From positions 1,318,681 to 1,382,680 of the forward strand of contig OX439035.1 in assembly GCA_949317995.1 (NCBI GenBank): a stretch of DNA of 64,000 nt, in the 5' to 3' direction. Source of the DNA: Acholoe squamosa (lineage: Eukaryota > Annelida > Polychaeta > Phyllodocida > Polynoidae). Each line of letters starts with the position of its first letter. The first letter of the stretch is position 1. Below are positions 19,356-62,807 of this stretch, one piece after another. Position numbers and translations under genes: made by a program. Under the pieces are notes generated by a model. That model was not told the DNA's origin and ran no database searches. It worked only from the letters and a program-made list of their open reading frames with translations.

Positions 19356-19359
19356 AATG

Positions 19360-25100: not shown

Positions 25101-25325
25101 ACTACGACAAGTCGTGCTCATGGAGTCCAAACGTGTGGAACGTAAGAGGTAGGTGCAATTTCTTTTTTTTTTTGTTGGATTTTTTGTCTAATATTTTGCA
25201 GATTGATCGATAGCTGGAGAATTTGTTTAGTCAACAAGGAGACAATCCAGTGACTGCTGTGGAAGTTTGTGTTCTTGTACTTATTATTATCAATGGAGGG
25301 GGAGAAAACTACTGGTTTAGAATTT

Positions 25326-25571
25326 AACCCCTTTAAGGATCTCTGATGCAGGAGTGCATCATGCCGATCTGTCATCATGATGCATCAATGAAGTGCAGAC
25401 AGCACTGTTTGCCAGCACTTTATTGATGCATCATGCCGAACCTCTGGGGATGTATCAACCCCGTAGGGCCGGCATGATTCATGAATGTCGAGTTACTCAC
25501 CAGGGCAGCATTCATGCATCGTGATGACGAATGGGTTTGATACATTAATGCCTTAGTGGTCTTTAAAGGGC
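25326..25571. repeat. Foldback repeat, best-preserved copy of the ATCATGATGCAT family
   Basis: The left arm starts CCCCTTTAAGGATCTCTGAT and contains GTCATCATGATGCATCAATG. The right arm, on the opposite strand, starts CCCTTTAAAGACCACTAA and contains GTCATCACGATGCATGAATG. The two arms of about 80 bp are inverted and flank a centre with CACTTTATTGATGCATCATG. No coding frame. Confidence 0.7.
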
Positions 25572-33006: not shown

Positions 33007-33605
33007 TTAAATGACTTACGTGTTGTGGATTAAGTCCTCATGATTTTAATGCATCATACCTAACACAGCATAAGACCAACAAAAGTGACAAAGTGTATAG
33101 CCATGTTGGAAGCAATCTGCCAGGACTGCATTCATGCCAAGAACACCAGTGCTTTTGATTGGGTGGCAAGCCAAGATAATTGCTTAGCATAAAACACGTG
33201 AAACGATTGATCATCTCATTTCCTCCAGAACGACAACCAAAACAACATAATACAGCAGCTCAATCTGGATACTTACGCGTCAATGTGTTGATGGGGGAAG
33301 TACAAGAAAAGCGGAATAAATCAGGCGCCCTGATTGTACCATAGATCATGGAGCCCAGAGGGCATTTCTAAACATGATATGACTGCACCCAACCAATAAG
33401 ACTTGAAAACTTTACCATTAGGGTGGGTGATTGTAGATGATGTGCTACAACTACTCTGTACAATCAGAGTTTATTGTAGTATTTACATAGGGTTTGGTAT
33501 TACAGTTGTACCAGTGCAATCATTAGTCACCACTAGATGTAGGGCTGTAATAGTCGTACCATGTTGAGCAATGGCTTCCTGGTGTCTAAGGGCTGTAATT
33601 ACAGT

Positions 33606-35579: not shown

Positions 35580-35581
35580 TA

Positions 35582-37311: not shown

Positions 37312-37313
37312 TA

Positions 37314-37876: not shown

Positions 37877-38115
37877 TCTTGTCTGACAAATGGTGTTTTT
37901 ATATATCATGCCTACTGTAAAAAAATGAAAGCTTTTAAATCAACGCCAGTACTCCAGCATAGTTTAGAAAAAAATTTCACTCCTATTTTTGTAGGGATTC
38001 TTTGTAACACAGTGGTTTACTGTGCTGCCATCTGGGGCCTGATTTTAGAGACTACATTACTTCACTGCATTACAGATATGGTGGCTCACTGTCTGAGTTT
38101 ACGAGGATCCATAGT

Positions 38116-38326
38116 TAACCATAATGGCCCGTTTAGGCACCCAGGTGCTCATTATTATCTGTACCTCTTTACCCCTACCCTTATTCAAGACAGGTACATA
38201 TTTTAGATAAGCCCATAATATTGATTTCGATACCCTTGTTCCCCGAATTCTTATTTGAGACGGTCTCAAATAAGAATCTGACCAGTATTTATTTGAGACC
38301 CTGACACTGGAATGAGCAATTATGGT
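38116..38326. mobile_element. Miniature element with TACCGTAAT-type ends, copy 1 version
   Basis: The left end TAACCATAATGGCCC and the right end AGCAATTATGGTA are inverted; the better-preserved paralogue at 58494 has TACCGTAGT and ACTACGGTA. The inside has repeated CTTATTTGAGAC motifs. Shared by copies 1 and 3, so it predates their separation. Confidence 0.6.
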
Positions 38327-40353
38327 ATTCACAATGGGTGTCCTCCATTCATTCATGGCACCGCAATACCCAGTGTGATGCTGTCAGACCTAATCAGTGC
38401 TATAACGAGATGTGTTTCATAACCTGATAAGGAGAGAGTCAATACAACGGTGCAAACCCTCCACACCAGCCCACAAAAACTGCAGCCTAAAAGGAATTAA
38501 ATCAGCACCCGAGTAAATGAACTAAATAAATAATGCAATTTGTCGCCTGCATCTGGCCGTATCAGCATAAGGTGTTAATTCAATTTGCATCATTCAGCTG
38601 GCAGCTCTAATCAAGTTGTGAATATTCATTTTGCTGCTCTGCTTGAAACATAAAAAATTAAACGCTAATATTTGATCAGTCTAACACTACATTTAGTATT
38701 GTTAGATTGCTTCAAGGATTTGGATTACCCTATACACAAGTTTTTATCATGAAAATCACAATGATTATCAATGATTATTTGATAAGCACATATCCTTTTA
38801 TACTAATTCTAATCCAGTTCTTTTAGTCTTCTAGAATACATATGGCTTATTTGGACATATATGTACAGGGAACCCTCTCAATGTGGATTCCCGCAGCTAT
38901 CTGACCTCTTAAGAGCCACTTATAAATGCAGTGAGTAACCTCAATAAGGCTGTATTCATGAATCATGAAGACCCTTTAGGGTTTGACACTCCCAGAGGCT
39001 CAACATGATGCACCAATATAGTGCTGGTGAGCACTGGTTCAACCAGCACTTCACGTTGATTGATGGCCATTTTCATCAGTGCTATATTGTTACCACTACA
39101 ATCTGTCATATCACCCAGCTCCTTGGTATTATCTTGCAAATAACCTTGAAAAATAGAAAATACCTAATCATTGTCACTACATTAATTAAAGAAATACTTG
39201 AGCTAGACAGTTCTGGGTATTCTATGGTTGTGATATCATTGTCTATATTTATCTTAGTATATCCCTATGTATCTATATATGACTAATAGACTCATACATG
39301 GGAAGGTAACTCTACCACTTATGTATAATGAACTTGATGCGCTTCTCCGTTAGTGCCCCTGAAAGGGTTAGGTTTCCCAAATTGCTGGATTCTATCAATA
39401 AAGTCAAATGAATTTCTGTTTCCTGACGACAAAAACAAATCAGCTGAAAAAAAAGTGGCTAATCAGATGCACCTGCTGTCCTTGCGGGCACAATGAGGGT
39501 CTTCCAAGCAGAAACAAGCCTCACAGACTCTCACACTTTAAAACAAAAGCTTTTTAGGTTTCAAAGCTGAAGCCATTTGTGATATTCTTTTCCTTTGCAA
39601 ACCCATTTTTTGCTGGTTGCCATAGAAACCAGCCTGTTCAAACAAGCATGAATAAAGGTGCCCTAAATAGGTCATAAACCCAACCTTTGACCCCTTTAAT
39701 GTCATTAGGGGATAGTGAATTGTGTGCTCCCACTAACACAGCCTAAGGAACAATGCAGCATATTTGGATAGCTGCAGCCATACAATAGTAACACCTAATG
39801 CATTGGCTTTACTAACATTGCTGTGGGGAGAGGGTATGTTAGGCCATTGAAATGTTTTCGTGTGAGGCACAGGCTGAAGTAACATGGAATACTAGGCTGC
39901 TGACTAAATATGTTGGGTGTAATGGTGAAGGTAAGACACTGTGGTCTGGGTCTCTCTGTATCACTATCGGCCCTCTACTGTCAATGCACAGACCTATGTA
40001 AAGTGGGCAGTGGGGCCGTTGTTCAGCTTTCTGTGCATCCAGGATCCATAAGGAATAGTGTACCCGGGATACACAAGGAATTGACCAATCAGGAGCAAGC
40101 ACCTGCTCAGCAGATGCATCTGCTACTTTCAAGATGGTGGATGTCTTGGCCACTCAGTTCAGCTTATTTCATCACAGATATCTGCTAGTTTATGAAAGAT
40201 GAAGTACAATTAAAAGCAGCAACTTATCATCTTTGAGCTTACACAAATTCTAGAATGCAGTTTCATTGGAAAGTCAGAATAATTTTACTATTATTTACTC
40301 TCTAAGCATCACTGTCCATACTGGACTTGGGCACTGTGGCGTTTACCAACAAA

Positions 40354-41545
40354 TGGACTGCTTCTGTATCCAGGATCCACAATAGACTGCTTCTGTATCC
40401 AGGATCCACAATAGACTGCTTCTGTATCCAGGATCCACAATAGACTGCTTCTGTATCCAGGATCCACAATATAGACTCCTTCTGTATCCAGGATCCACAA
40501 TAGACTGCTTCTGTATCCAGGATCCACAATAGACTCCTTCTGTATCCAGGATCCACAAGGATCTCCCTTCTGTATCCAGGATCGACAATAGACTGCTTCT
40601 GTATCCAGGATCGACAATAGACTCCTTCTGTATCCAGGATACACAATAGACTCCTTCCGTATCCAGGATCCACAATAGACTCCTTCTGTATCCAGGATCC
40701 ACAATAGACTGCTTCTGTATCCAGGATCCACAATAGACTCCTTCCGTATCCAGGATCCACAATAGACTCCTTCCGTATCCAGGATCCACATTAGACTGCT
40801 TCTGTATCCAGGATCCACAATCGACTCCTTCCATATCCAGGATCCACAATAGACTCCTTCCGTATCCAGGATCCACAATAGACTCCTTCTGTATCCAGGA
40901 TCCACAATAGACTGCTTCTGTATCCAGGATCCACAATAGACTCCTTCCGTATCCAGGATCCACAATAGACTGCTTCTGTATCCAGGATCCACAATAGACT
41001 GCTTCTGTATCCAGGATCCACAATAGACTCCTTCTGTATCCAGGATCCAGATTAGACTGCTTCTGTATCCAGGATCCACAATCGACTCCTTCCATATCCA
41101 GGATCCACAATAGACTCCTTCCGTATCCAGGATCCGCAATAGACTGCTTCTGTATCCAGGATCCACAATAGACTGCTTCTGTATCCAGGATCCACAAAAG
41201 ACTCCTTCTGTATCCAGGATCCATAATAGACTGCTTCTGTATCCAGGATCCACAATAGACTGCTTCTGTATCCAGGATCCACAATAGACTGCTTCTGTAT
41301 CCAGGATCCACAATAGACTCCTTCTGTATCCAGGATCCACAATAGACTGCTTCTGTATCCAGGATCCATAATAGACTGCTTCTGTATCCAGGATCCACAA
41401 TAGACTGCTTCTGTATCCAGGATCCATAATAGACTCCTTCCATATCCAGGATCTACAATAGGCTCCTTCTGTATCCAGGATCCACAGTAGACTGCATCTG
41501 TATCCAGAATCCACAATAGACTGCTTCTGTATCCAGGATCCACAC
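40354..41545. repeat. 29-bp minisatellite, about 41 units, at the junction of copies 1 and 2
   Basis: The unit is CCAGGATCCACAATAGACTG with CTTCTGTAT. Two main forms differ at ACTGCTTCTG versus ACTCCTTCYG. Since 29 is not a multiple of three, each minus-strand frame cycles through all registers and stays open, which explains frames of 366-401 residues (SLLWILDTE, GSWIQKQSIVDPGY). Not a gene. Confidence 0.96.
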
Positions 41546-41767
41546 TTACCGACCTGCCTCCTTCAGCACCAGAAATACCCCTACCCTCCACCGCCTTATA
41601 ACTGCACTCACCCTACCTTTTAGCTAGGCACAATTCTACTGGCACAGAAATACCCCCATGCTATCCTAATGTACTAGATGCAGCAACCACAACTACAGGT
41701 TACCGAGGAATGAGAATACAGTGGGTATCATCCCAGAGTGGGGATTGGGAGCATAAATCAATTTCCT

Positions 41768-41822
41768 AACAGGATGTAAACAAACTGATTAGGAAGCCAT
41801 CTTGATGATGCACCATGGGATA

Positions 41823-41884
<62 letters not shown>

Positions 41885-41960
41885 GCCATTTTGATGATGC
41901 ACCATGTGAAAGATCCCATAATGCCACATTTAGGGATATAAATATATCCCATAGTGCATC
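41768..41960. repeat. 72-bp repeat remnants with an internal (TA)n run
   Basis: One unit with GATTAGGAAGCCATCTTGAT leads into ATATATTT and about 50 bp of TA repeats (41826-41876), then CACACACAGCCATTTTGATGA resumes the unit. The TA run seems to have grown inside the GGATATATCC part of a unit. Confidence 0.85.
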
Positions 41961-42984
41961 ATCAGAGATATTAAAAAATATCCCAAAACCTGATTGGGCA
42001 GCCATTTTGATGAAGCATCATAGGCTCAGTCTCATAATGCTTACGATATATTTTCTGTCTTAATGAATAATAAATACAGTGAGTAAGCATGACAACCCCC
42101 TATAGGCCATGCACAATGACCTTACGACCCACATGAACTATATCCTGATGTTTATTGCTACATCTAAATCCCCAAAAGCAGGACATGTATTTTCTTATGG
42201 GCTGAAAAATGACAGACTTCCTCTTTTAAGATATGATTACAAAATTACTTCGGCTGGGTCTTCAGATTGTAGACTGATATTATTGATGCTCTTCATATGA
42301 GAGTGGTCTTTTTTCAACAACAGGGGGTTGGTAAATTTTCACACACATGCTCAAATCAATTGCTTTTGAAGGAAATATTTCTGTCCCCCTTTTATTGTAT
42401 GCATATTTTTATGATTCTTTCCTTTGCTAAATGGGGACATGTTTTGTTTCTGTACCTCCTATAGATTGGTCCATGTGAACCCATCAACGTCTTTATCATA
42501 AAAAGATTGGCCATTCCTTAATAGCAGATCATGGTGTTTTAGCATTCATCCCTATACATCATTGGCAATGATTCCCCCATCATTAATTATCACAATCAGG
42601 ATCAGATACAGGCTTGGTGATTTATCTCAGTAGACACAAGTACCATGAGTGTAAGCAGTACACATTTGGGGACTTGCTGCCTTATGTACAGTGCTTTATG
42701 CTAAAAGATGTATCAAGATAATTTCCTCAGTAGGCCATACCTGCAGGCTGAGATAGGGTCCCTGGAGAAATGTCTGTGAACCATTAACTGGCCTCCAGCA
42801 GAATGATCCATGGCCTCATACACAATAACTCTATATCTAACCTAGAGATATTGTCTGAAATTCTTCCTCCACGACTTTCTTTATTTTTTTGCTTGGTTAG
42901 ATGACCTGAAAGGGGAAGATATAGAACAAGTCTTTGTGCTTCTGCTACTGCCTCATGTTCAAAAAGTGGATGTCACACCAAGCG

Positions 42985-43290
42985 CTCTATACGTGTCAAA
43001 ATAATGCATCATGCAACACTGCAGTGCTGGTGAGTTTTACTGCTCCGTGAGCTTATCATGGTGTCAAATGTTGCTTTCATGCTACTTACAACCATGAACC
43101 AATAGTGTGCTGATGCAGAAGTCCATCCTGTCCATCGGGTGGCATGATGCACCGATGAAGCACTGTCGAGTGTGCTTCATACCACTTCATGATCCATCAG
43201 AATCAATGTAGCCCTGGCAATCCATACATCAGTACTGCAATTATGCATCATGATGACCAATGGGTATGATGCATTAATTCATTAGTGGCT
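42985..43290. repeat. Foldback repeat in copy 2 with the unexpanded precursor of the 20-bp satellite
   Basis: Contains GCAGTGCTGGTGAG and ends GACCAATGGGTATGATGCAT with TAATTCATTAGTGGC. At 43132-43151 it reads CATCGGGTGGCATGATGCAC once, which is a full consensus unit of the satellite found at the same relative place in copy 3. Confidence 0.8.
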
Positions 43291-44335
43291 GTAAATGAGC
43301 TATGGGGGCTAAAACTAGAGCCTTTGATTGGATGGCGAACGAATATAATTGATCACCTCCTTTCCTCCACAACTACAACCAAATCAACATAAAACAACTG
43401 CCTAATCAGGATATTTACGAATCAATGTGTTGATAACGGAAGTACAAGAAAAGTGGTGCAAATCAGGCACCTTGATTGTGCCATAGATCATGGAGCCAGG
43501 AGGGCATTTCTCAACATGATACGACTGCACCCAGCCATTATGACTTGAAACCTTTACCATTAGCGTGGGTGATGGTAGATGATGTTCTAAGACTACTCTG
43601 TACAATCAGCATTTAATGTAGTATTGATCAAATTGGTTGTGGCCATAATCATTGACAATTAGAGTCTTATTGGAAAGAACCTGCAGGTTGAAACCACTGT
43701 ATAAACTTAGATCTTCCAGGAACAGTCGGATGTCCATGATGGAAGTTGGAAGCATGAATTTTGGAACCATAAATTGCTACAGTTAGTAGTGTTAGATTGA
43801 TCAAAGAACTTAGATTACCCGTACACAAGTGCAACTGCTTTATTAAACAAGTTTAGCATAAAAATCACAATGAATGCTCTTTTCTCAATGAATAATGGTC
43901 AATCACATTTTTCATTACTAATTCTAATTATTACATGTTATTTTAGTCATCTAGAATAATCATACTTTATTGGACATACATGTACAGGGGTTCGTCAGTG
44001 TTGATTCCCTCAGCTCTCTAACCCTTTATAAGCCACTTGAATACAGCGAGTAACCTCAATAGGTCTGTATTTATGAATCTTGCAGACTCTTTACGGTTTG
44101 GACACTCCCAGTGGCTCAACATGATGCACCAATATAGCGCTGGTGACTGATGGCCATGTTCCCTGGTACTGTATTATTACATGTACACCTCAATGTGTGA
44201 TATCACCCAGCTCCTTCATATCTTCTTGTAAATCACCTTGAAAAATAGAAAATACCTAATCATTCTCGCTACATTCATTTGTAATGAACACTTGAGCTAA
44301 ATATTTTTTGGGTAGTTCATGGTCCTGATATTATT

Positions 44336-44336
44336 A

Positions 44337-44387
<51 letters not shown>
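44336..44387. repeat. (TA)n microsatellite
   Basis: About 26 TA units between ATTATTATC and ATCTTGGTATATC. Copies 1 and 3 have only a few TA units at the matching place (39245, 59650), so it expanded in copy 2. Confidence 0.95.
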
Positions 44388-44389
<2 letters not shown>

Positions 44390-44692
44390 TGGTATATCTA
44401 TATGACATATGGACTCCTACATGGTGAGGTAACTATACCCCCTGTGTATAATAAGCTATATGAAAAGGACCAAGTTTGCTAATTATGACGTTAGCTGGGA
44501 ATGCGTCAATATGGTGACCATGGCTTAGATTACCTGTCAGGAGAGATAAAGTCACACAGACTCTAATCATATGACGCTAATTAGGCAGTGTAAGATGAGC
44601 AGCGGGCTAACACTGTGTATTACTATCGGCTGTGTTGAAGCCATTTTGAAGCCTTAGAAAAGTTATAAAAGTTTCTTCAAATGGAGTATATA

Positions 44693-45319
44693 GTCCAAGA
44701 GCCCAGGCACTTTTATTTTTGTTTTTGTGGCCAAAATTTTTGAAGATTCATCCTTATGTGGAATTTTCTGATAAAATCCAATGATGCCTTATCCGGCACA
44801 ATTAGTTCAAAGTCGGGACTCCCCTTTTTTACTGGAATCTTTTTTCTTGATCAACACCCATATTTCACAATGAAGCTATCTTTACCTATGTTTTCAGGTG
44901 TCAGAAATCTGTTTTTCAGACTTTTATATGTATTTAACAGGTGTCATTGAAAATTCCAAAATAGCTACCATAAAACCATCGATTTCAGAACGTTTTAACC
45001 AAGATATCATAAACATCCTCTCATCAGTCCATATACTTGGCTCAAACTGTTCTCAAGTGGTCTTAAAGACTCCACAGTTATTAATTAGATTTGATCGGAA
45101 CCACTAACCATTGGACTGCACCTCTTGAAAAAGAAAACAGATGCCAGTAAAACTGGGGGTTCCTGAATCTGACTTAATTTTGCTGGATAACAGACAGTCA
45201 GATTTTTGTAGGACTTGCATTTCTGAATTCAGCAGAAAATTTTAAATAAGAATTGAGGAGCCTTCAAACCCTATGGTCACAAAAACAAAAACAAAACAAC
45301 AGAGCCTAGGCTCTTGGAC
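44693..45319. mobile_element. 627-bp element with long inverted arms and TA target duplication
   Basis: Left GTCCAAGAGCCCAGGC and right (complement) GTCCAAGAGCCTAGGC are near-identical. Weaker pairing extends about 190 bp inward (GTTTTTGTG, TTTTACTGG, TCTTTTTTCTT). TA lies on both sides. Copy 3 near 60450 reads straight through the site, so the insertion is private to copy 2. Open frames inside are short and featureless. Confidence 0.8.
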
Positions 45320-46282
45320 TAATCACTTCCTTGTATAAGCTGTGTGTGGATGCACATTTGTCAGGGAGCTCATTGTGAGGGGTAAGTTTGGGTCCACTAA
45401 TCTAAGCTAAATGTCGTCAGTCACCTTGTTACTTTGTCAATCCATCATCAATACATCTTGGTGTCATTAGGACTTCTCAAGGGTTTCTAATAAAAATAAC
45501 AACAGACAACAACTGAGTCTGTATATGCTCCCCCTGAGAGCACATTTGATCAGATTTCATTAAGAAAATATCTGGTTGATGAAATTTGTTACTCTTTGGG
45601 AATTCAATAGATATTTGTTTAATACCAGAATATCAGAAAGAAATGCAAATCTAAGAACTATAAATATGGATATATGATAGATTAACGTTAGAGTGAATTC
45701 GCCCCTAAAATATTTACAAGAGTAGAAATTGAATACTGTCCCACTGAGTCCATATGTCATTTCCACTTTCCCCTTGGTGTCTTGTTTCTTCTTTCTTTTT
45801 AGACCTGTTCATCACTGTGTCGTTCCTATGGTGTTATGTTTCCATTTACCCCGAATCCATTCACTTAGATTCAGACGTCAATATTGTCATGTTCCACTAT
45901 CCCTAAATCCATCTGTCTGCACTTTTACATTCAAATAAGGAGGCCATTTTGTTGCATAAGGTGACTTATTTGAAATATAAAGTTATGTTCTCATTTATAG
46001 ATCTATCAAGACAGGATTGCACATTGAATTGCATTTTCTCAGATTAGTCCAAATTGACAGTGTATTAATGGACCTGATTAGAAGGCAAAATTCTATTTGT
46101 TAGGCTGGTTATTTGTCAATCAGTTAAATTCATAGACCTTCACCTTTTTCTCTTTTATCTCTATTTCAGTATGTGGGTGTCTTGTTTTCTGCTAACCTTG
46201 AAGTCGTTTATCTTAATCTCCATTCTCAGGGTGTCTTGTTGACCACTATTCCTGCTACCATTTGTCTCTGTCACACTTGTCG

Positions 46283-46387
46283 AGCATTCTGAAATCTAGT
46301 TCAATTAACTCCAGCAGGGGGAGATATTGACACCGACAGCCTTAAATAACACTGCCCTGAATGATGCAGCCAGCGACACATCAGTTA
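46283..46387. promoter_or_regulatory. Conserved non-coding island, copy 2 (candidate regulatory element)
   Basis: About 105 bp, from AGCATTCTGAAATCTAG to CGACACATCAGTTAAA, match 61853-61957 in copy 3 at about 95%, while sequence on both sides is much more diverged. It contains CAATTAACTCC and CAGCAGGGGGAGATATTGAC. No open frame is kept. A regulatory role is inferred only from this uneven conservation. Confidence 0.35.
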
Positions 46388-46712
46388 AATCTTTAACTCT
46401 TTAACTCTGATGCATTTATAGGTGGTGTGCATGAGGGCATCATGCCCATTGGTTGTCATGATACAGCAATGAAGTCTGCTTGCCAGTACTTCATCGGAGC
46501 GTTTTCCCCATCCTCCAGGGATGTATTAACTCCATAGGGTGAACATGATGCATCAATGAAGCTTCATTTATGAATCATGCAGGGTTGATACGGTTCCCAG
46601 GGGTCAGCGTGATGATAAAATGAAGAGTTCATGAGCACAGACTCGTCAAAACTTCATTGGTGCATCTTGACGACCAATGGACATGATGCACTTCTCCATT
46701 AGTGCCCCTTTA
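46387..46712. repeat. Foldback repeat of the ATCATGATGCAT family, copy 2
   Basis: Starts with TTTAACTCTGATGCATTTAT and ends GACATGATGCACTTCTCCATT then AGTGCCCCTTTAAGG, with GGTTGTCATGATACAGCAATG and CTTCATTGGTGCATCTTGACG between. Its partner in copy 3 is at 61975-62272. Confidence 0.6.
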
Positions 46713-47850
46713 AGGGTGAGGTTTCTCACATTGCTGGATTATGTCAGTAAAGTCAAATGGGTTTCTTCTCCCTGGCAACAAAAACAAATAAGCTGGAAAG
46801 GAACATGGCTTATCAGATGTGCCAGCTGTCCTTTCCGGGCATAATGAGACTCATCCAAGCAGAAACAATTCCCCAAAACTAGCCTCTCAAACTCTCACAC
46901 TTTAAAACAAAAGCTTTTTAGGTTTCAAAGCTGAAGCCATTTCTGATATTTTTTTACTTTGGTCATAAATGCAACCTATGACCCCTTTAAGTCATTCTCG
47001 GTAAATATTCTGTGCTCCCAATAACAAATAGTGCAGACTATAAGCAGCTGCAGCTGCAGCCACACAACAACTGAGCCTAATGTGATAGGTATAGATTTCG
47101 CTAACATCGCAGAGGGGAGGTTATGTTAGGCTGTTGAAATATCCTCATGCTAGGCAAAGGCTGAAATATATAGGCAAAGTTTTACTCATATTGGGTCTGT
47201 CTGATCCTACGGGAGACACCCTCCTCAGAGTGGAGTGACCCCAATATACGCCATGGTTGTTTAGTTCATGTAAGCGCAGTCTCCATATTGTTTTATTCTG
47301 TACTGTGAAGTGAGATAGCAAGCAGCCGATTGTAACTTATCCTGTACGCTCAAACCTGCCACTAGAAAGTAGCCAGGAGCACCCAGAGAGGCCCTCAACT
47401 TGGCACTCCCTAAGCATATGTTTCAGACTACAAAAAGGTGTGCTTGTAGAGTGAAGAGTATTTCCTGTTCCATTTCCTGTTCCATAGTGGGACATAGTGG
47501 GAGTTATATATAGTCTACAACCACTGTGTGTTGCTGCTTCCTGTATGGTGGTGCCCTGGGGGGTCAAACCTCCGGCCACCAGAGTACCAGAGTTCTTATA
47601 GCTTAGAGCAACATGACAAATGACAAAATAGGAACACTTACCAACCTGCCTCCTTCAGCACCAGAAATAGCCCTACTCTCATTACTACACTCACCATACC
47701 TCATAGCTGCGCACAATTCTACCGCTACAGAAATACCCCCAAGCTATCCTAATGTACTAGATGCAGCATCCACAGCTAGAGCTTACCTAGAAATGAGACT
47801 ACAGTGGGGGTCATCCCAGAGTGGGGATCGGGAGCATTAATCAATGGCCT

Positions 47851-48640
47851 TACAGGATGTAAACAAACTGATCAGGCAGCCATTTTGATGATGCACTATG
47901 GGATAGATCCCACAATGCAACTTACAGGATGTAAGTCTGATTAGGCAGCCATTTTGATGATGCACTATGGGGTATATCCCACAATGCATCTTACAGGATG
48001 TAAAACTGATTAGGCAGCCATTTTGATGATGTACTATGGGGTATATCCCACAATGCATCTTACAGGATGTAAAACTGATTAGGCAGCCATTTTGATGATG
48101 CACTATGGGATAGATCCCATAATGCACCTTACAGGATGCAAACAAACTGATCAGGCAGCCATTTTGATGATGCTCCATGGGATATATATCCCCAAATGCA
48201 CCTTACAGGATGTGAACAAACGAGTGGTCCATGACACGAGTCGGAGAGTTTAAGCAGGGACGGTTTAAGCTGAGACGTGGTTGAAGCAGGGACACGTTGT
48301 AGGTCCCCCTATCTCTGTCTGACACATCATTGAAAACAAATAATTCATTGAAAACGATTAAAACCATGATAACATCCCTCTCTTCTTATAGAATTTGAAC
48401 GTTAGCCCTAACCCTAGTGATACTGTCCCTACGCCGTAGAATCATGAAATGGGTAAAGATAGGACTCTGTCTCTGCTTAAACCGTCTCAGCTTAAACCTC
48501 ACTGTCCCTGCTTAAACTCTCCGACTCGTGTCATGAATACATGGAACAAACTGATTGTGCAGACATTTTGATGATGCACCTTGGGGTATATCCCACAATG
48601 CACCATTTGGAGATATGATTATATCCCATAATGCACCATT
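47851..48640. repeat. 72-bp tandem repeat of copy 3, split by an inserted element
   Basis: Five units (47868-48213) with GATCAGGCAGCC or GATTAGGCAGCC, then the insertion at 48222-48543, then a further unit starting AAACTGATTGTGCAG. The unit is the same as in copy 1. Confidence 0.9.
48222..48543. mobile_element. 322-bp inverted-repeat element with 8-bp target duplication
   Basis: GAACAAAC flanks both ends (48214-48221 and 48544-48551). The arms carry CATGACACGAGTCGGAGAGT and TTTAAGCAGGGAC in opposite orientation, and the inner parts repeat GTTTAAGCTGAGACG. Joining the flanks restores the 72-bp unit. Eight bases would fit hAT or P-type insertion. No coding frame. Confidence 0.75.
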
Positions 48641-50269
48641 AAGGATATGAAGAAATATCTCAAAAAACTGCTTGGGCAGCCATTTTGATGAAGCACCACA
48701 GGTGCAGTCTCATAATGCTTACCTTATATTATCCGTCTTCATGAGTAATGAATACAGTAAGTCAGCATGATGGCCCGCTATAGGCTACACCGCATGACCT
48801 ACATGAACCATATCCTGATGTTTATTGCTACACCTAAATCCCCACATGCACAGGCTTTGTTTTTTTCTTATGGACTGACAAATGACAGGTTTCCTCTCTT
48901 AAGGTGGGTCGCTACCATTGAATATGTACCGACTATGCAGGGCGCTGCACATGTAGATTATTTTTATGAAAGTAAAACCATATTTGGTATGCTCAAAACT
49001 ATGTTCCTCCTAAATCCCCACAAACAATGTCGGACAATTATGCTCAAAATTGAGCATTTTATGACTATTTAAGATTTTGGCACATTTCACTTCTGGATTT
49101 CTTTCTGCATTCCCTTGGACATCATCTTGTACCTTATCATTATAACCATCACTTTCCCGAGAGACTGTTTTAAAAGTTCTCAGCTGCTGAGAACTTTCCT
49201 CATGCGAGGTTTCATATTTCTGTGTTTGTTGGTTATGATAGAAAAAATCATCGAAGTGAAAACCTTTCCATCAATTATTCTTGGAGAAAGTTTTCTGCCC
49301 ATCTTTTATTCAATACTCAAATGCAGAATATTTCTTCTGTTAAACGAGGGGCATTTTTCTCTGTTCCTGCTAAAGCTTGGTCCCAGTCAACCCATCAACT
49401 CGCCTATCAGTAATAAGATTCCTTAAAAGCAGATCATGGTGTTTTAGCAGATAGTCCTGTGCATTATTTGCAATGATTTCCATGTCTTTAACTCTCATCA
49501 TAAAGATGAGATGCAGGCTTGCTGAGTTATCTCACGAGGCTACACATTATGTGCTGCAAAGACGCCACTACCATGAAACCCAGTGTTTAAGTACCACAAT
49601 TTTGCAGACTTGTGATCTTATACACATGGCTTCATGGTGAAGATGGTTTAACGGGATTTCCTCAGTAGGCCGTACCTGCAGGCTAAGAGGATTCATGAAC
49701 TTAGTCCTTGGAGGAGGGTTAACCACATACTGGCCTCCAGCGGAATACAACCCTATGGACAGCAATCACTCGCCTCTAGCTCGCACCACTGATGAAATCT
49801 GGACCTTAACGCTGTGGGACTTTTCATCACTGTTTGTGCAGGAAACAGTATTCAAATCAGGGCTGATCTCAAATAAGGGCCAGGGTAGAGTGTTATTAAA
49901 ATTAAAAGTGCCTGCATGTTTAAACTGGGCACAACGGTACCAAAGATTTCTTAATGAAGGCTACTAGAATCCTGAACTTGACTTGCCTGAGGTGTTGTGG
50001 ATTAATCCTTAGGATTTAAATGCATCCTACCTAACACAGCTTAACAACAATGCATGTGACAAAGTGTATACTCATGGTGGAAGTGACTTGCCAGAACTGC
50101 ATTCAATTAAACAGCGGATGGCAAACTAAACGCTCTATAAATGTCAAAATAATGCATCAATGCAGTGCTGGTGAGTTCCACTGGTGCTCCATGCATGATC
50201 CCAAATGTTGCTTCCAGGCTTCTTACAACCATGAACCAATGATGTGCTGATGCAGGAGTGCTTGCTATA

Positions 50270-53200
50270 CATTGGGTGACATGATGCAGCATTGGGTGGC
50301 ATGATGCAGCATCCGGTGGCATGATGCACCATGGGGCGGCATGATGCACCATTGGGCGGCATGATGCACCATTGGGCGGCATGATGCACCATTGGGTGGC
50401 ATGATGCACCATTGGGCGGCATGATGCATCATCGGGTGGCATGATGCACCATGGGGCGGCATGATTCACCATTGGGTGGCATGATGCACCATCAGGCGGC
50501 ATGATGCACCATCGGGCGGCATGATGCACCATCAGGTGGCATGATGCAGCGTTGGGTGGCATGATGCACCATCGGGTGGCATGATGCACCATTGGGTGGC
50601 ATGATGCACCATCGGGTGGCATGATGCACCATTGGGTGGCATGATGCAGCATTGGGTGGCATGATGCACCATCGGGTGGCATGATGCACCATCGAGTGGC
50701 ATGATGCACCATTGGGTGGCATGATGCACCATGGGGTGGCATGATGCACCATTGGGTGGCATGATGCACCATCGGGTGGCATGATGCACCATCGAGTGGC
50801 ATGATGCAGCATTGGGTGGCATGATGCACCATTGGGTGGCATGATGCACCATCGGGTGGCATGATGCACCATCAGGTGGCATGATGCACCATGGGGCGGC
50901 ATGATGCAGCATTGGATGGCATGATGCAGCATTGGGTGGCATGATGCAGCATTGGGTGGCATGATGCACCATCAGGTGGCATGATGCACCATGGGGCGGC
51001 ATGATGCAGCATTGGGTGGCATGATGCAGCATTGGGTGGCATGATGCACCATCAGGTGGCATGATGCACCATGGGGTGGTATGATGCAGCATTGGGTGGC
51101 ATGATGCAGCATTGGGTGGGATGATGCACCATCAGGTGGCATGATGCACCATCAGGTGGCATGATGCACCATCGGGTGACATAATGCACCATGGGGCGGC
51201 ATGATGCAGCATTAGGTGACATGATGCAGCATTGGGTGGCATGATGCAGCATTGGGTGGCATGATGCAGCGTTGGGTGGCATGATGCAGCATTGGGTGGC
51301 ATGATGCACCATCAGGTGGCATGATGCACCATCGGGTGACATAATGCACCATGGGGCGGCATGATGCAGCATTGGGTGACATGATGCAGCATTGGGTGGC
51401 ATGATGCAGCATTGGGTGGCATGATGCAGCGTTGGGTGGCATGATGCAGCATTGGGTGGCATGATGCACCATCAGGTGGCATGAGGCACCATCGGGTGGC
51501 ATGATGCACCATGGGGCGGCATGATGCACCATTGGGTGGCATGATGCATCATTGGGCGGCATGATGCACCATCGGGTGGCATGATGCACCATGGGGCGGC
51601 ATGATGCACCATCGGCTGGCATGATGCACCATGGGGCGGCATGATGCACCATTGGGTTGCATGATGCACCATTGGGTGGCATGATGCACCATCAGGTGGC
51701 ATGATGCACCATCGGGTGGCATGATGCACCATCGGGTGGCATGATGCACCATGGGTGGCATGATGCACCATCGGGTGGCATGATGCACCATGGGGCAGCA
51801 TGATGCACCATTGGGCCGCATGATGCACCATTGGGTGGCATGATGCAGCATAGGGCGGCAAGATGCACCATCGGGTGGCATGATGCACCATCGGGTGGCA
51901 TGATGCACCATCGGGTGGCATGATGCACCATCGGGTGGCATGATGCAGCATTGGGCGGCATGATTCACCATTGGGTGGCATGATGCACCATCAGGTGGCA
52001 TGATGCACCATCGGGTGGCATGATGCACCATCGGGTGGCATGATGCACCATCGGGTGGCATGATGCACCATCGGGTGGCATGATGCAGCATTGGGTGGCA
52101 TGATGCACCATTGGGTGGCATGATGCAGCATTGGGTGGCATGATGCAGCATTGGGTGGCATGATGCACCATCAGGTGGCATGATGCACCATGGGGCGGCA
52201 TGATGCAGCATTGGGTGGCATGATGCAGCATTGGGTGGCATGATGCACCATGGGGCGGCATGATGCAGCATTGGGTGGCATGATGCACCATCAGGTGGCA
52301 TGATGCACCATGGGGCGGCATGATGCAGCATCGGGTGGCATGATGCACCATTGGGTGGCATGATGCACCATTGGGTGGTATGATGCAGCATTGGGTGGCA
52401 TGATGCACCATGGGGCGGCATGATTCACCATCGGGTGGCAGGATGCACCATTGGGTGACATGATGCAGCATTGGGTGGCATGATGCACCATTGGGTGGCA
52501 TGATGCAGCATTGGGTGGCATGATGCACCATCAGGTGGCATGATGCACCATCAGGTGGCATGATGCACCATCAGGTGGCATGATGCACCATCGGGTGACA
52601 TAATGCACCATGGGGCGGCATGATGCAGCATTGGGTGACATGATGCAGCATTGGGTGGCATGATGCAGCATTGGGTGGCATGATGCACCATTGGGTGGCA
52701 TGATGCAGCATTGGGTGGCATGATGCACCATCAGGTGGCATGATGCACCATGGGGTGGCATGATGCAGCATTGGGTGGCATGATGCACCATGGGGCGGCA
52801 TGATTCACCATCGAGTGGCATGATGCACCATTGGGTGGCATGATGCAGCATTGGGTGGCATGATGCACCATCAGGTGGCATGATGCACCATGGGGCGGCA
52901 TGATGCACCATGGGGTGGCATGATGCACCATGGGGTGGCATGATGCAGCATTGGGTGGCATGATGCACCATGGGGTGGCATGATGCACCATGGGGTGGCA
53001 TGATGCAGCATTGGGTGGCATGATGCAGCATTGGGTGGCATGATGCAGCATTGGGTGGCATGATGCACCATCAGGTGGCATGATGCACCATGGGGCGGCA
53101 TGATGCAGCATTGGGTGGCATGATGCAGCATTGGGTGGCATGATGCACCATCAGGTGGCATGATGCACCATGGGGCGGCATGATGCACCATGGGGTGGCA

Positions 53201-56200
53201 TGATGCACCATGGGGTGGCATGATGCAGCATTGGGTGGCATAATGCACCATGGGGCGGCATGATGCACCATCGAGTGGCATGATGCACCATTGGGTGACA
53301 TGATGCACCATTGGGTGGCATGATGCACCATTGGGTGGCATGATGCACCATCGGGTGGCATGATGCACCATCGGGTGGCATGATGCACCATTGGGTGGCA
53401 TGATGCAGCATTGGGTGGCATGATGCACCATCGGGTGGCATGATGCACCATCGAGTGGCATGATGCACCATTGGGTGGCATGATGCACCATTGGGTGGCA
53501 TGATGCACCATCGGGTGGCATGATGCACCATCAGGTGGCATGATGCACCATGGGGCGGCATGATGCAGCATTGGATGGCATGATGCAGCATTGGGTGGCA
53601 TGATGCAGCATTGGGTGGCATGATGCACCATCAGGTGGCATGATGCACCATGGGGCGGCATGATGCAGCATTGGGTGGCATGATGCAGCATTGGGTGGCA
53701 TGATGCACCATCAGGTGGCATGATGCACCATGGGGTGGTATGATGCAGCATTGGGTGGCATGATGCAGCATTGGGTGGGATGATGCACCATCAGGTGGCA
53801 TGATGCACCATCGGGTGACATGATGCAGCATTGGGTGGCATGATGCAGCATTGGGTGGGATGATGCACCATCAGGTGGCATGATGCACCATCAGGTGGCA
53901 TGATGCACCATCGGGTGACATAATGCACCATGGGGCGGCATGATGCAGCATTAGGTGACATGATGCAGCATTGGGTGGCATGATGCAGCATTGGGTGGCA
54001 TGATGCAGCGTTGGGTGGCATGATGCAGCATTGGGTGGCATGATGCACCATCAGGTGGCATGATGCACCATCGGGTGACATAATGCACCATGGGGCGGCA
54101 TGATGCAGCATTGGGTTACATGATGCAGCATTGGGTGGCATGATGCAGCATTGGGTGGCATGATGCAGCGTTGGGTGGCATGATGCAGCATTGGGTGGCA
54201 TGATGCACCATCAGGTGGCATGAGGCACCATCGGGTGGCATGATGCACCATGGGGCGGCATGATGCACCATTGGGTGGCATGATGCATCATTGGGCGGCA
54301 TGATGCACCATCGGGTGGCATGATGCACCATGGGGCGGCATGATGCACCATCGGCTGGCATGATGCACCATGGGGCGGCATGATGCACCATTGGGTTGCA
54401 TGATGCACCATTGGGTGGCATGATGCACCATCAGGTGGCATGATGCACCATTGGGTGGCATGATGCACCATCGGGTGGCATGATGCACCATGGGTGGCAT
54501 GATGCACCATCGGGTGGCATGATGCACCATGGGGCAGCATGATGCACCATTGGGCCGCATGATGCACCATTGGGTGGCATGATGCACCATCGGGTGGCAT
54601 GATGCACCATCGGGTGGCATGATGCACCATCGGGTGGCATGATGCAGCATTGGGCGGCATGATTCACCATCGGGTGGCATGATGCACCATCAGGTGGCAT
54701 GATGCACCATCGGGTGGCATGATGCACCATCGGGTGGCATGATGCACCATCGGGTGGCATGATGCACCATCGGGTGGCATGATGCAGCATTGGGTGGCAT
54801 GATGCACCATTGGGTGGCATGATGCAGCATTGGGTGGCATGATGCAGCATTGGGTGGCATGATGCACCATCAGGTGGCATGATGCACCATGGGGCGGCAT
54901 GATGCAGCATTGGGTGGCATGATGCAGCATTGGGTGGCATGATGCACCATGGGGCGGCATGATGCAGCATTGGGTGGCATGATGCACCATCAGGTGGCAT
55001 GATGCACCATGGGGCGGCATGATGCAGCATCGGGTGGCATGATGCACCATTGGGTGGCATGATGCACCATTGGGTGGCATGATGCAGCATTGGGTGGCAT
55101 GATGCACCATCAGGTGGCATGATGCACCATCAGGTGGCATGATGCACCATCAGGTGGCATGATGCACCATCGGGTGACATAATGCACCATGGGGCGGCAT
55201 GATGCAGCATTGGGTGACATGATGCAGCATTGGGTGGCATGATGCAGCATTGGGTGGCATGATGCACCATTGGGTGGCATGATGCAGCATTGGGTGGCAT
55301 GATGCACCATCAGGTGGCATGATGCACCATGGGGTGGCATGATGCAGCATTGGGTGGCATGATGCACCATGGGGCGGCATGATTCACCATCGAGTGGCAT
55401 GATGCACCATTGGGTGGCATGATGCAGCATTGGGTGGCATGATGCACCATCAGGTGGCATGATGCACCATGGGGCGGCATGATGCACCATGGGGTGGCAT
55501 GATGCACCATGGGGTGGCATGATGCAGCATTGGGTGGCATGATGCACCATGGGGTGGCATGATGCACCATGGGGTGGCATGATGCAGCATTGGGTGGCAT
55601 GATGCAGCATTGGGTGGCATGATGCACCATCAGGTGGCATGATGCACCATGGGGCGGCATGATGCACCATTGGGTGGCATGATGCACCATTTGGCAGCAT
55701 GATGCACCATTGGGTGGCATGATGCACCATCGGGTGGCATGATGCACCATCGGGTGGCATGATGCAGCATTGGGTGGCATGATGCAGCATTGGGTGGCAT
55801 GATGCAGCATCGGGTGGCATGATGCACCATTGAGTGGCATGATGCAGCATTGGGCTGCATGATGCACCATCGGGTGGCATGATGCAGCATTGGGCTGCAT
55901 GATGCACCATTGGGTGGCATGATGCACCATCGGGTTGAATGATGCACCATCAGGTTAAATGATGCACCATCGGGTGGCATGATGCACCATCGGGCGGCAT
56001 GATGCACCATCGGGCGGCATCATGCACCATCGGGCGGCAAGATGCACCATCGGGCGGCATCATGCACCATCGGGCGGCATGATGCACCATCGGGCGGCAT
56101 GATGCACCATCGGGCGGCATGATGCACCATCGGGCGGCATGATGCACCATCGGGCGGCATGATGCACCATCGGGCGGCATGATGCACCATCGGGCGGCAG

Positions 56201-56588
56201 CATGATTCATCATCGGGCGGCATGATGCACCATCGGGCTGCATGATTCACCATCGGGCAGCAGGATGCAGCATCGGGCAGCATGATGCACCATCGGGCGG
56301 CATGATGCACCATCGGGCGGAATGATGCACCATCGGGCGGCATGATGCACCATCGGGCGGCATGATGCACCATCGGGCGGCAGGATGCACCATCGGGCGG
56401 CATGATGCACCATCGGGCTGCATGATTCACCATCGGGCAGCAGGATGCAGCATCGGGCAGCATGATGCAGCATCGGGCAGCATGATGCACCATCGGGCGG
56501 CATGATGCACCATCGGGCGGAATGATGCACCATCGGGCGGCATGATGCACCATCGGGCAGCATGATGCACCATCGGGCGGCATGATGA
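50270..56588. repeat. 20-bp satellite, about 316 units
   Basis: The consensus is CATCGGGTGGCATGATGCAC. Main unit forms have CATCGGGTGG, CATTGGGTGG (usually after GATGCAG), CATGGGGCGG or CATCAGGTGG. Two 19-bp units at 51750 and 54490 shift the register. The last 600 bp (55.98-56.59 kb) are a separate block of almost uniform CATCGGGCGG units. All minus-strand frames of up to 290 residues (MPPDGASCHPMVHHATRWCI) are repeat artefacts. Confidence 0.98.
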
Positions 56589-57558
56589 ATGCAGAATGAA
56601 TGCAGACCTGACAAGTCATGCACCAACACTGCATTTATGCATCATGATGTCCAATGTGTATGATCCATTTATTCATTAGCTGAACTGAATGGGCCTAACT
56701 AAAGGGCTAAAACCAAGGAGACCAGGGTTTCTGATTGGGTAGCATTATCGCTCGTATAAAACATGAAATGATTGATCACCTCCCTTCTTCCAACATGACA
56801 ACCAAAGCAACATAAAACAACAGCCAATCAGGATATTTATGAGTCAATGTGTTGATGTGGGAAGAAGGGGCACAAATCAGGTGCCCTGATTGTGACATAG
56901 ATCATGAGACAGGAGGCGTTTATCAACATGGTCGGTGATTGTAGGTGACCAACTACGACTACTCTGTACAATCAGCATTTATTGTAGTATTAGGGTTGGT
57001 ACTGCAGTCGTACCAGTGCAATCATTAGTGACCACTAGATGGTGGCCTGTAATGGCACTACAGTGAGAGATCCTACTATGATTTGCAGGGGTCTAGTCAT
57101 ACCATATTGAGAAATAGACATCTTCCTGGTGTTAAGGGCTGTAATTACAGTGCTGAGGGCAGGGTGTGATCTTTATCCCATTCCAACACAAGGTATTAGG
57201 GACAGTTATACTGGGTCTCATGTAGGCTTTGTGCTAATAACTAACATTGTCTATAGCAATGAGTCCCAGTGGCGGATCCAGGATTTTGAAAAGGAGAGGT
57301 CAAGCTCCTTGTTTATCCCCTATTTTTGATTAATTTACAAAAGTGGGTGCAAGCTTCTAAACCTGCCACTTATTCCAGATGGTTTGTGTGCACAGCCATA
57401 ATTATCGACCATGAGCCTTGTTGGAAAGTTTGAAACAGCTTGAAACCACTTTATCATCTTAGGATACAACTGCAACAGTTGAAATTCCAAGATGAAAGTT
57501 AGCATAGATTTATCGACCAAAGTATAATCCACAAACTTCTTTGCACTGCTTCAGATCT

Positions 57559-58260
57559 GAGTTGCTGCTGAGGCTAACAAAGGCTGCCTATGTTGGGGCA
57601 GCCTTATTGCCAGTTTACCGAGGCTACCCACAGTGAGTTGCTGCTGAGGCTAACAAAGGCTGCCTATGTTGGGGCAGCCTTACTGCCAGTTTACCGAGGC
57701 TACCCACAGTGAGTTGCTGCTGAGGCTAACAAAGGCTGCCTATGTTGGGGCAGCCTTACTGCATGTTTACCGAGGCTACCTACAGTAAGTTGCTGCTGAG
57801 GCTAACAAAGGCTGCCTATGTTGGGGCAGCCTTATTGCCAGTTTACCGAGGCTACCCACAGTGAGTTGCTGCTGAGGCTAACAAAGGCTGCCTATGTTGG
57901 GGCAGCCTTATTGCCAGTTTACCGAGGCTACCTACAGTGAGTTGCTGCTGAGGCTAACAAAGGCTGCCTATGGTGGGGCAGCCTTACTGCCAGTTTACCG
58001 AGGCTACCCACAGTGAGTTGCTGCTGAGGCTAACAAAGGCTGCCTATGTTGGGGCAGCCTTATTGCCAGTTTACCGAGGCTACCCACAGTGAGTTGCTGC
58101 TGAGGCTAACAAAGGCTACCTATGTTGGGGCAGCCTTATTGCCAGTTTACCGAGGCTACCCACAGTGAGTTGCTGCTGAGGCTAACAAAGGCTGCCTATG
58201 GTGGGGCAGCCTTACTGCCAGTTTACCCAGGCTACCTACAGTGAGTTGCTGCCGAGGTTG
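57559..58260. repeat. 76-bp minisatellite of copy 3 (about 9 units), diverged from copy 1 version
   Basis: The unit is GAGTTGCTGCTGAGGCTAAC, AAAGGCTGCCTATGTTGGGG, CAGCCTTATTGCCAGTTTAC, CGAGGCTACCCACAGT. Length and order match the copy 1 unit (76 bp), but roughly a third of the positions differ in all units. Confidence 0.95.
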
Positions 58261-61974: not shown

Positions 61975-62272
61975 AGTTATTAGCGGGATTCATTGGTCGT
62001 CATGATGCAGCAATGATGTGCTGCTACGTTTAGTTGCCAGTACTTCATCATAGCATCATGCCCATCCTCCAGGGGTGTATCCATAGGGTGAACATGATGC
62101 ATCAATGTAGCTTCATTCATGCATCATGCTGACCTTACAGGGTTGAATCACTCCCAGGGGTCAGCATGATGCTCAAATGAAGTGCTCATGAGCAGAGATT
62201 CATCAAAACGGCATTGGAACATCATGAAGACCAATGGACATGATGCCCTCATGCATAAACATCCCTTCTAGG
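61975..62272. repeat. Foldback repeat of the ATCATGATGCAT family, copy 3
   Basis: Carries TTGGTCGTCATGATGCAGCA, CTTCATTCATGCATCATGCT and GACCAATGGACATGATGCCC. It aligns with 46387-46712 in copy 2. Confidence 0.6.
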
Positions 62273-62807
62273 GTCAGATTTCCCACATTGCTGGATTATG
62301 ACAATAAAGTCAAGTGAATTTCTTCTCCCTGACGACAAAAACAAATCAGCTGGAAAAGAACATGGCTAATCAGATGTGCCAGTTGTCCTCCGGGCACAAT
62401 GAGGCTCTTCCAAGCAGAAACAATTCTCCAAAACAAGCCTCACAGACTCTCACACTTTAAAACAAAAGCTTTTTAGGTTTCAAGGCTGAAGCTATTTCTG
62501 ATCTCTTTTTTCCTTTGTAGGTCCATTTCTTTTGCCAGTGCCATAGAAACCAGCCTGTTCAAAGAAGTTATGTATATAGGTGCCTCAAGCAGGTCACAAA
62601 TTTAATACAACCTTTGACCCCTGTGTGTCATTAGGAGTTAGTGTATTCTGTGCTAACACAGCCGATTAAACATCACTGCATGGGGGGGTGGGGTATGTTA
62701 GGCCATTGAAATGTTTTTGTCTGAGGCACAGGATGAAATAACATGGAATACTAGGCTGCTGACTAAATATGTTGAGTGTGATGGTGAAGGTAAGACACTG
62801 TGGTCTG

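What the first reader, a model, noticed from the sequence alone, without database searches (positions are those of the whole stretch)
50270..56588. Birth of a 6.3-kb satellite from a single 20-bp motif, caught by paralogue comparison
In copy 2 the foldback repeat reads CATCGGGTGGCATGATGCAC once (43132-43151), between TGAACCAATAGTGTGCTGATG and the ATGCATCATGATGACCAATG tail. In copy 3 the same left flank (TGAACCAATGATGTGCTGATG, 50231) and an equivalent right flank (ATGCATCATGATGTCCAATG, 56637) enclose about 316 copies of that unit. So the pre-expansion site and the expanded satellite sit in one window, and the seed is a piece of a foldback transposon-like repeat. This gives direct evidence for how such a satellite starts.
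Basis: partly seen in the sequence, partly recalled or inferred. Interest (0 to 1): 0.72.

Follow-up and report, generated by a model that had tools for sequence, protein, structure and literature searches.

The report
Transposon arm grown into a minisatellite
A 20-letter piece of a small, hairpin-shaped jumping element that sits in this animal genome in large numbers was multiplied about 316 times in a row at one place, and unexpanded copies of the same element let us see roughly what the site looked like before.

Summary
Copy 2 has CATCGGGTGGCATGATGCAC once (43133-43152); copy 3 has 316 units at 50270-56587 inside matching flanks. The carrier is a dispersed, near-palindromic ~263-bp TTAA-ended MITE whose right end matches 4139 places. 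The motif in its single-copy context matches 2647 places; the 20-bp dimer pattern occurs only here (299 of 299 hits). So the array is derived.

Corrections: (1) it is a single-locus minisatellite, not a satellite; (2) copy 3 lost the element's centre, so the array joins left-arm to right-arm sequence, and the other arm holds a near-copy of the motif, so 'one motif' is not proven; (3) growth included a recent ~2.4-kb block duplication (8 substitutions in 2260 bp); (4) paralogues differ by ~20%, so copy 2 is a cousin, not the ancestor.

Other MITE copies carry arrays of other segments (17, 17, 26, 34, 36, 56 bp). Four of six arrays counted have a junction direct repeat of 4 bp or more. Against specialness: MITE sequence is not denser in arrays than its surroundings. 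Known kind, unusually clear case.

The parts
50270..56587 (+). 20-bp minisatellite array, 316 units, consensus CATTGGGTGGCATGATGCAC
   Evidence: only such array found in the 1.48-Gb assembly (299 of 299 dimer-pattern hits at up to 2 mismatches)
50630..53088 (+). first copy of a block duplicated inside the array
   Evidence: unit-level alignment with 53309-55647: 113 unit pairs, 105 identical, 8 substitutions in 2260 bp, 14 gained or lost units; score 168 against at most 12 in 30 shuffles of unit order
53309..55647 (+). second copy of that block
50106..50269 (+). left remnant of the MITE-like insertion in copy 3: extra stretch shared with copy 2, then MITE left arm from about 50243
   Evidence: 81% to copy 2 over 161 columns; aligned to the family; left junction lies where copy 1 has no insertion
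56588..56715 (+). right-arm remnant of the MITE in copy 3 (joins the array at the family's GGCATGATG...AATGYAG)
   Evidence: 72% to copy 2 over 116 columns
42961..43310 (+). unexpanded paralogous MITE insertion, copy 2
43133..43152 (+). single motif CATCGGGTGGCATGATGCAC in copy 2 (family positions 42-61)
43153..43190 (+). element-centre sequence kept in copy 2 and lost in copy 3
   Evidence: 16 of the first 22 bases equal the family consensus; matches family centre better than array unit
33134..33137 (.). copy 1: the same position without the insertion (never inserted, or lost)
   Evidence: 33012-33134 matches 49984-50105 and 33137-33551 matches 56713-57053
25324..25570 (.). another, unexpanded copy of the MITE family in the window
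61991..62274 (.). another, unexpanded copy of the MITE family in the window

Best explanation
Copy 3 is a minisatellite born inside one old copy of a very numerous, near-palindromic TTAA-ended MITE. SHOWN: the 20-bp unit is the element's left-arm segment (family positions 42-61); its single-copy state is the rule in the family; the array lies between left-arm and right-arm sequence, and the element's centre is gone; no other 20-bp dimer of this core was found in the assembly; a block of about 2.4 kb of the array was duplicated recently. INFERRED: the first duplication arose by slippage or template switching while the fold-back element was copied or repaired. It was helped either by the short CCA repeat at exactly 20-bp spacing in the unexpanded element, or by the near-copy of the motif in the other arm, which a deletion of the hairpin centre would bring next to it. 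Once two units existed, ordinary slippage and unequal exchange of units, and later of blocks, made 316. I expect no function; it is most likely neutral and length-polymorphic.
For: Family and palindrome: consensus of 32 full-length copies, 263 bp, 244 of 263 positions equal to its own reverse complement, folds as one hairpin. Right end: 2067+2072 matches at up to 3 mismatches, control 0. Motif in context: 1327+1320 matches at up to 2 mismatches, control 0. Uniqueness. Position of the array in the element. At spacing 20 the only exact direct repeat of 3 bp or more in the type-B consensus is CCA at position 41, one base before the array's start point; in type A it is one of two. Copy 2 is not a contracted array. 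Block growth. Same process elsewhere in the family: 34 bp x 8.4 (L065), 17 bp x 3.5 (L079), 17 bp x 2.2 (L102), 26 bp x 49 (L032) and 56 bp x 4 (L009), units being segments of the MITE with MITE flank on both sides or, in L032, clearly on the right only. Junction direct repeats, exact: 6 (14 with one mismatch), 9, 4, 4, 2, 1 bp for L065, L079, L102, L032, L009, L063; 4 of these 6 reach 4 bp, against 1.7-2.9% of breakpoints in the consensus (binomial 1e-6 to 1e-5). With the two rows dropped from that count (copy 3, L056) it is 4 of 8 (6e-6 to 4e-5).
Against: For copy 3 itself the microhomology is only 3 bp in the family consensus and 2 bp (CC) in copy 2; in the collapsed copy 3 sequence the score was 1, though indels shift the frame there, and L056 scored 0. 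L009 and L063 have only 2 and 1 bp (L063 abuts the element and takes in flank). The null was computed on the consensus, whereas L079 and L102 start from rearranged elements. No allele or sister species was seen, so neither birth date nor step order is observed. An array in the ancestor of copies 2 and 3 that shrank back to one unit in copy 2 is not strictly excluded. The reverse strand of the array unit also matches the segment after the copy-2 motif (score 21, 1 of 500 shuffles), as expected of a palindromic element but a caution against reading too much into that comparison.
Confidence: 0.8

Rival explanations
1. Left-arm/right-arm fusion: a deletion of the hairpin centre put the left-arm motif next to its near-copy in the right arm, making a 20-bp dimer at once; slippage from a single motif was not needed.
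For: The array's right edge joins right-arm sequence and the centre is missing in copy 3. The consensus has internal direct repeats CATGATGC at spacing 101 and GGCATGATGC at spacing 72. L079 and L102, read against the consensus, also carry their 17-bp arrays at an internal deletion.
Against: Units at both ends of the array are nearer the left motif (16-17 of 20) than the right motif (14-16 of 21). The right motif is one base longer in the consensus.
Confidence: 0.4
2. Contraction: the common ancestor of copies 2 and 3 already had an array and copy 2 shrank to one unit.
For: Copies 2 and 3 share the GGGTG core, which differs from the commonest family forms.
Against: The same core followed by CCAATGAAG is found exactly in 6 other places on five contigs, so it is a family variant. 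Copy 2 keeps family-centre sequence directly after the motif.
Confidence: 0.08
3. Hot element: the palindromic MITE is a special minisatellite nursery, with its hairpin provoking repeated births.
For: Seven arrays of different, partly overlapping segments of the family were seen at different loci, copy 3 included.
Against: In 20 loci of 5.3 kb, arrays of period 10 or more number 32 in 94.9 kb outside the element and 2 in 11.1 kb inside it (3.8 expected; one of the 2 is native arm similarity). Up to three of the 32 may themselves contain MITE pieces (L056, L063, L066).
Confidence: 0.2
4. Assembly artefact: array length or block duplication created by the assembler.
For: Reads were not available.
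Against: The two blocks differ by 8 substitutions and 14 gained or lost units, and the array carries 56 unit kinds, unlike a simple duplicate contig.
Confidence: 0.04

Closest known systems
Alu-derived human minisatellites (Jurka and Gentles 2006; Ahmed and Liang 2012, PMC3389668)
   Same: A very numerous transposable element whose internal segments, some between short direct repeats, became tandem arrays. Passages of PMC3389668 seen; the 2006 paper only as cited there.
   Different: Here a DNA-transposon MITE that is a near-perfect palindrome, in an unnamed animal genome, with an expanded and an unexpanded paralogous insertion 7 kb apart.
miDNA4 MITE satellite of Xenopus (Scalvenzi and Pollet 2014)
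   Same: MITE with a monomer present once in some copies and as an array in others, with short direct repeats of 5 bp or more flanking. Seen only as described in passages of PMC12628747 and PMC9659126.
   Different: There one internal monomer, thought to be captured, varies across the family; here different segments are expanded at different loci, and the 20-bp one at a single locus.
Xstir repeats on the Xmix MITE (Hikosaka and Kawahara 2004)
   Same: Tandem repeats derived from internal MITE sequence (as described in passages of PMC12628747).
   Different: There the model joins two neighbouring elements; no such pair is needed here.
Tetris foldback transposon of Drosophila virilis (Dias et al. 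2014, PMC4079207)
   Same: Foldback element supplying tandem repeats that grow into satellite-like arrays (abstract and section 19 read).
   Different: TIR-220 units are about 220 bp, lie in the inverted repeats of the element and form longer satellite-like arrays; here one locus and a 20-bp unit.
Minisatellite birth models: Haber and Louis 1998; Taylor and Breden 2000
   Same: First duplication between short direct repeats or by slipped-strand mispairing, then expansion (as cited in passages of PMC6947457 and PMC3389668; Taylor and Breden asked for and not held).
   Different: No difference in kind; this is a case with a well-known ancestral sequence.

Membership tests
MITE (non-autonomous DNA transposon) | short, terminal inverted repeats, no coding capacity, many dispersed copies | tested here: met
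   263 bp, 244 of 263 positions palindromic, 0.90 mean identity of 32 copies to the consensus; right-end matches listed on contigs C1-C18 (first 100 of 4139 places). Coding was judged only from length; no protein search of the element was made.
MITE (non-autonomous DNA transposon) | target-site duplication | tested here: inconclusive
   Copies begin and end with TTAA or decayed forms, but no filled/empty pair with a clean TTAA was seen; copy 1 lacks the insertion and also a TTAA.
piggyBac- or Kolobok-type TTAA superfamily | related autonomous transposase with the same termini | not tested
   No transposase search was made; the link between TTAA and these superfamilies is recalled.
Minisatellite | tandem units of about 10-100 bp in an array of up to tens of kb at one locus | tested here: met
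   20 bp, 6.3 kb; 299 of 299 genome hits of the dimer pattern in this array
Satellite DNA (genome-scale family) | long arrays at many loci or in heterochromatin | tested here: not met
   single locus at up to 2 mismatches in the dimer pattern; dimers of the common TCGT-core variant were not excluded because that search did not complete
Classical foldback element (FB, Tetris, Galileo) | inverted repeats themselves made of tandem repeats in most copies (recalled for FB) | tested here: not met
   3 of 60 end-anchored copies have an internal array (L065, L079, L102); the consensus is a simple palindrome
Haber-Louis birth (short direct repeats at the junction) | direct repeat of 5-10 bp bounding the seed | tested here: inconclusive
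   copy 3: 3 bp in consensus. Exact junction repeats: L065 6 (14 with one mismatch), L079 9, L102 4, L032 4, L009 2, L063 1, copy 3 1 (frame shifted by indels), L056 0

The most novel reading that the evidence does not exclude
This MITE family is a natural replicate experiment in minisatellite birth: one known 263-bp palindrome pasted thousands of times, from which arrays of different units (17, 20, 26, 34, 36, 56 bp) were born independently, with start points predictable from the element's own internal direct repeats and often coupled to loss of the hairpin centre. Birth rate, breakpoint choice and early growth (2, 3, 8, 49, 316 units) could then be read from one genome.
Probability: 0.4. Interest if true: 0.62.

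Novelty: new member of a known kind. Interest (0 to 1): 0.42.

Why it matters
How a minisatellite takes its first step is hard to study because the starting sequence is usually unknown. Here it is known from a very large number of dispersed copies of one short palindrome, and a paralogous insertion 7 kb away shows the unexpanded form of the same insertion. That makes the first step (which breakpoints, how much microhomology, whether the hairpin centre is lost first) countable in one genome.

Tried and rejected
Copy 2 as a contracted array: judged unlikely. A genome-wide 20-bp satellite: rejected. The MITE as an array hotspot: not supported by the density control. Rows dropped before the array counts: L066 (96 bp x 2.0, native similarity of the two arms), L080 (34 bp x 3.4, not a clean tandem), L056 (39 bp x 17.9, only 19 bp match the MITE; kept as possible only). 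L024-L030 are seven near-identical places in the first 324 kb of C3, counted as one birth; the one followed has about 36 units and its right end is not MITE, so its junction was not scored. L063 is counted as abutting, not internal. From the eight junctions scored, copy 3 and L056 were left out of the '4 of 6'; with them it is 4 of 8. An early reading that L009 starts at a 5-bp CAGTG repeat was wrong: the collapsed junction gives 2 bp.

Gene content: Pfam found nothing in four open frames of the window, nor in 1-3000 frame 1. In 37801-47402, six frames, all the weak hits (DUF6445, DUF5553, DUF6218; DUF6445 above its curated cut-off) lie inside the 29-bp array at 40352-41544, so I take them as chance. 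The rest of the window was not scanned. Copy 1 as an empty site: junction found, but with no TTAA, so insertion and loss cannot be told apart. The three paralogues are about equally distant near the element (0.80 each), so their branching order is open.

Searches not answered: the 34-bp junction pattern, the TCGT-core dimer pattern and a further array cluster at C3:3251455-3252337. These questions stay open.
Full report
WHAT IS THERE. The window lies at C1:1318681-1382680 of a 1.48-Gb assembly in 63 contigs. It is rich in minisatellites: Tandem Repeats Finder covers 20,701 of 64,000 bases. Three paralogous segments, roughly 31.4-40.0, 41.5-47.0 and 47.6-63.6 kb, align to each other. Near the element they are about 80% identical pairwise, with no clear branching order; further right, copies 2 and 3 reach 89%. 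The finding's array is in the third segment: 50270-56587, period 20, 315.9 copies, resolved here into 316 units of 56 kinds.

THE ELEMENT. A search with the copy-2 element gave 933 first-look candidates; 40 were scored, giving 52 matches on many contigs. The family is a short element with ends TTAACCCTTTAA...TTAAAGGGTTAA. I read 60 of the 100 listed copies with an exact 47-base right end; 32 of the 60 were full length by the script's rule (a left end found, 225-270 bp) and gave a 263-bp consensus. Of its positions, 244 of 263 equal its own reverse complement, and it folds into one hairpin; mean identity of the 32 copies to it is 0.90. The right-end 47-mer matches 2067+2072 places at up to 3 mismatches, none for the reversed control. 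Because the element is a palindrome, one copy can be counted twice, so this is 'places', not elements. Of 63 exact hits on the twelve contigs whose length I had, 55 lie within 15 Mb of a contig end, against an expected third.

THE SEED. In the family alignment the array starts at the left-arm segment CATTGGTCGTCATGATGCAC (positions 42-61), which is single in that place in the aligned members that keep it. Copy 2 has CATCGGGTGGCATGATGCAC there. The motif with its normal continuation, CCATYGGGTGGCATGATGCACCRATGAAG, matches 1327+1320 places at up to 2 mismatches (again places, not elements; 100 listed), 7 exactly: copy 2 and six places on five contigs (C1, C3, C8, C10 twice, C12). So the GGGTGG form is a family variant and the motif followed by CCRATGAAG is the ancestral state. 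By contrast the 20-bp dimer pattern gives 299 hits genome-wide and 299 in the window. At this sensitivity the array is unique. Dimers of the TCGT-core variant would need more mismatches; that search did not complete.

COPY 2 IS PROBABLY NOT A SHRUNKEN ARRAY. The 48 bases after its motif score 28 against the type-B family centre (0 of 500 shuffles as good) and 22 against type A (2 of 500), but 14 against the array unit (25 of 500). The reverse strand of the array scores 21 (1 of 500), as expected for a palindromic element.

First, copy 3 lost the element's centre. Its array begins in the left arm and ends in the right arm (GGCATGATG-AATGCAG). The element carries near-copies of the motif core in both arms in direct orientation (CATGATGC at spacing 101, GGCATGATGC at spacing 72). 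So either slippage from one motif or a centre deletion that joined the two near-copies could make the first dimer. Units at both array ends are nearer the left motif (16-17 of 20) than the right motif (14-16 of 21), which favours the left motif but does not settle the order of steps. Second, growth was not only unit by unit: 50630-53088 and 53309-55647 pair as 113 units with 105 identical and 8 substitutions in 2260 bp (0.35%), plus 14 gained or lost units; score 168 against at most 12 in 30 shuffles. Third, copy 1 lacks the insertion (33134/33137). Copies 2 and 3 share the insertion and an extra stretch to its left, so they carry one and the same insertion, but about 20-28% divergence makes copy 2 a distant cousin of the pre-expansion site.

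THE SAME THING ELSEWHERE IN THE FAMILY. Among the 60 end-anchored copies, 3 carry an internal array (L065 34 bp x 8.4; L079 17 bp x 3.5; L102 17 bp x 2.2) and one has an array abutting it that takes in its end and flank (L063 17 bp x 59). Among the loci brought, L009 has a 56-bp unit x 4, L032 a 26-bp unit x 49, and seven near-identical places near the start of C3 (L024-L030) a 36-bp unit, at least 26 copies and about 36 in the one followed; the right end of the last is not MITE. Units of these match the MITE consensus at E of 1e-3 or less, L063 excepted. Collapsing arrays to one unit gives exact junction direct repeats of 6 (14 with one mismatch), 9, 4, 4, 2 and 1 bp for L065, L079, L102, L032, L009 and L063. 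Only 1.7-2.9% of breakpoints in the consensus have 4 bp or more, so 4 of 6 is unlikely by chance (1e-6 to 1e-5). The same call also scored copy 3 (1 bp, frame shifted by indels) and L056 (0 bp, doubtful MITE origin); with them it is 4 of 8 (6e-6 to 4e-5). The sample is small, and L079 and L102 start from rearranged copies. For copy 3, CCA at position 41 is the only exact repeat of 3 bp or more at spacing 20 in the type-B consensus, one base before the array's start point; in type A it is one of two.

A CONTROL THAT CUTS THE OTHER WAY. In 20 loci of 5.3 kb, arrays with period 10 or more number 32 in 94.9 kb outside MITE sequence and 2 in 11.1 kb inside (3.8 expected), one of the two being native arm similarity; up to three of the 32 may hold MITE pieces. 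The palindrome is therefore not shown to be a hotspot. This genome makes minisatellites in many sequences, and the MITE mainly lets one see the starting sequence.

MECHANISM. Shown: position, polarity, uniqueness at the stated sensitivity, centre loss, block growth. Inferred: slippage or template switching at microhomology or between arm near-copies in a fold-back element, then slippage and unequal exchange. These models are in print: Haber and Louis 1998 and Taylor and Breden 2000, as cited in passages of PMC6947457 and PMC3389668; MITE versions by Hikosaka and Kawahara and by Scalvenzi and Pollet, as described in passages of PMC12628747 and PMC9659126; the foldback case Tetris in PMC4079207 (abstract and section 19). 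Pearl-family MITEs with internal repeats are known in bivalves (passages of PMC5139131). I did not find this MITE family named; my five paper searches looked for kinds of event, not for this sequence.

VERDICT. Observation confirmed. Interpretation partly supported: a single-locus minisatellite derived from one arm of a palindromic MITE, with an unexpanded paralogue nearby and a very large number of unexpanded relatives. It is a new member of a known kind; its worth is as a countable system for minisatellite birth.

Noticed in passing
G000:C3:3251455-3252337: Eight matches to the seed-in-context pattern at spacings of 111, 61, 72, 182, 61, 295 and 72 bp: probably another tandem array made of MITE pieces. 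Fetching it did not complete.
   Followed up: no
L024-L030 (seven places within C3:2-324 kb), L111: Repeated block, in both orientations near the start of contig C3, with a 36-bp MITE-derived array plus 30-bp and 34-bp arrays.
   Followed up: partly
L063:3791-4794: 17-bp unit x 59 directly left of a full-length MITE copy; the unit spans flank plus TTAACCCTTT of the element's end, so insertion end and array are linked.
   Followed up: partly
G000 contigs C1-C12: Exact-end MITE copies crowd the outer 15 Mb of contigs: 55 of 63 listed against 33% expected.
   Followed up: partly
window 29940-30229, 31225-31428, 47848-48213: 72/72/69-bp arrays with similar units beside or in paralogous segments 1 and 3, apparently older than the duplication, unlike the 20-bp array.
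   Followed up: no
window 34946-35581, 37312-37872, 57558-58257: Three 76-bp-period arrays; the first two have similar consensus units.
   Followed up: no
window 19277-20626: 1.2-kb CTG-rich imperfect repeat with long open frames on both strands (Ala/Val/Thr- and Ser/Asn-rich); probably not a gene.
   Followed up: no
L056:739-1439 (locus turned so that the MITE right end reads forward): 39-bp unit x 17.9 of which only 19 bp resemble the MITE arm; possible old or second-family case.
   Followed up: partly
L066:1564-1969 (locus turned as above): 44-bp unit x 9.2 containing TTTAACCCTTTA..GGCTGC, which looks like the MITE's end sequence within a flank-derived unit.
   Followed up: no
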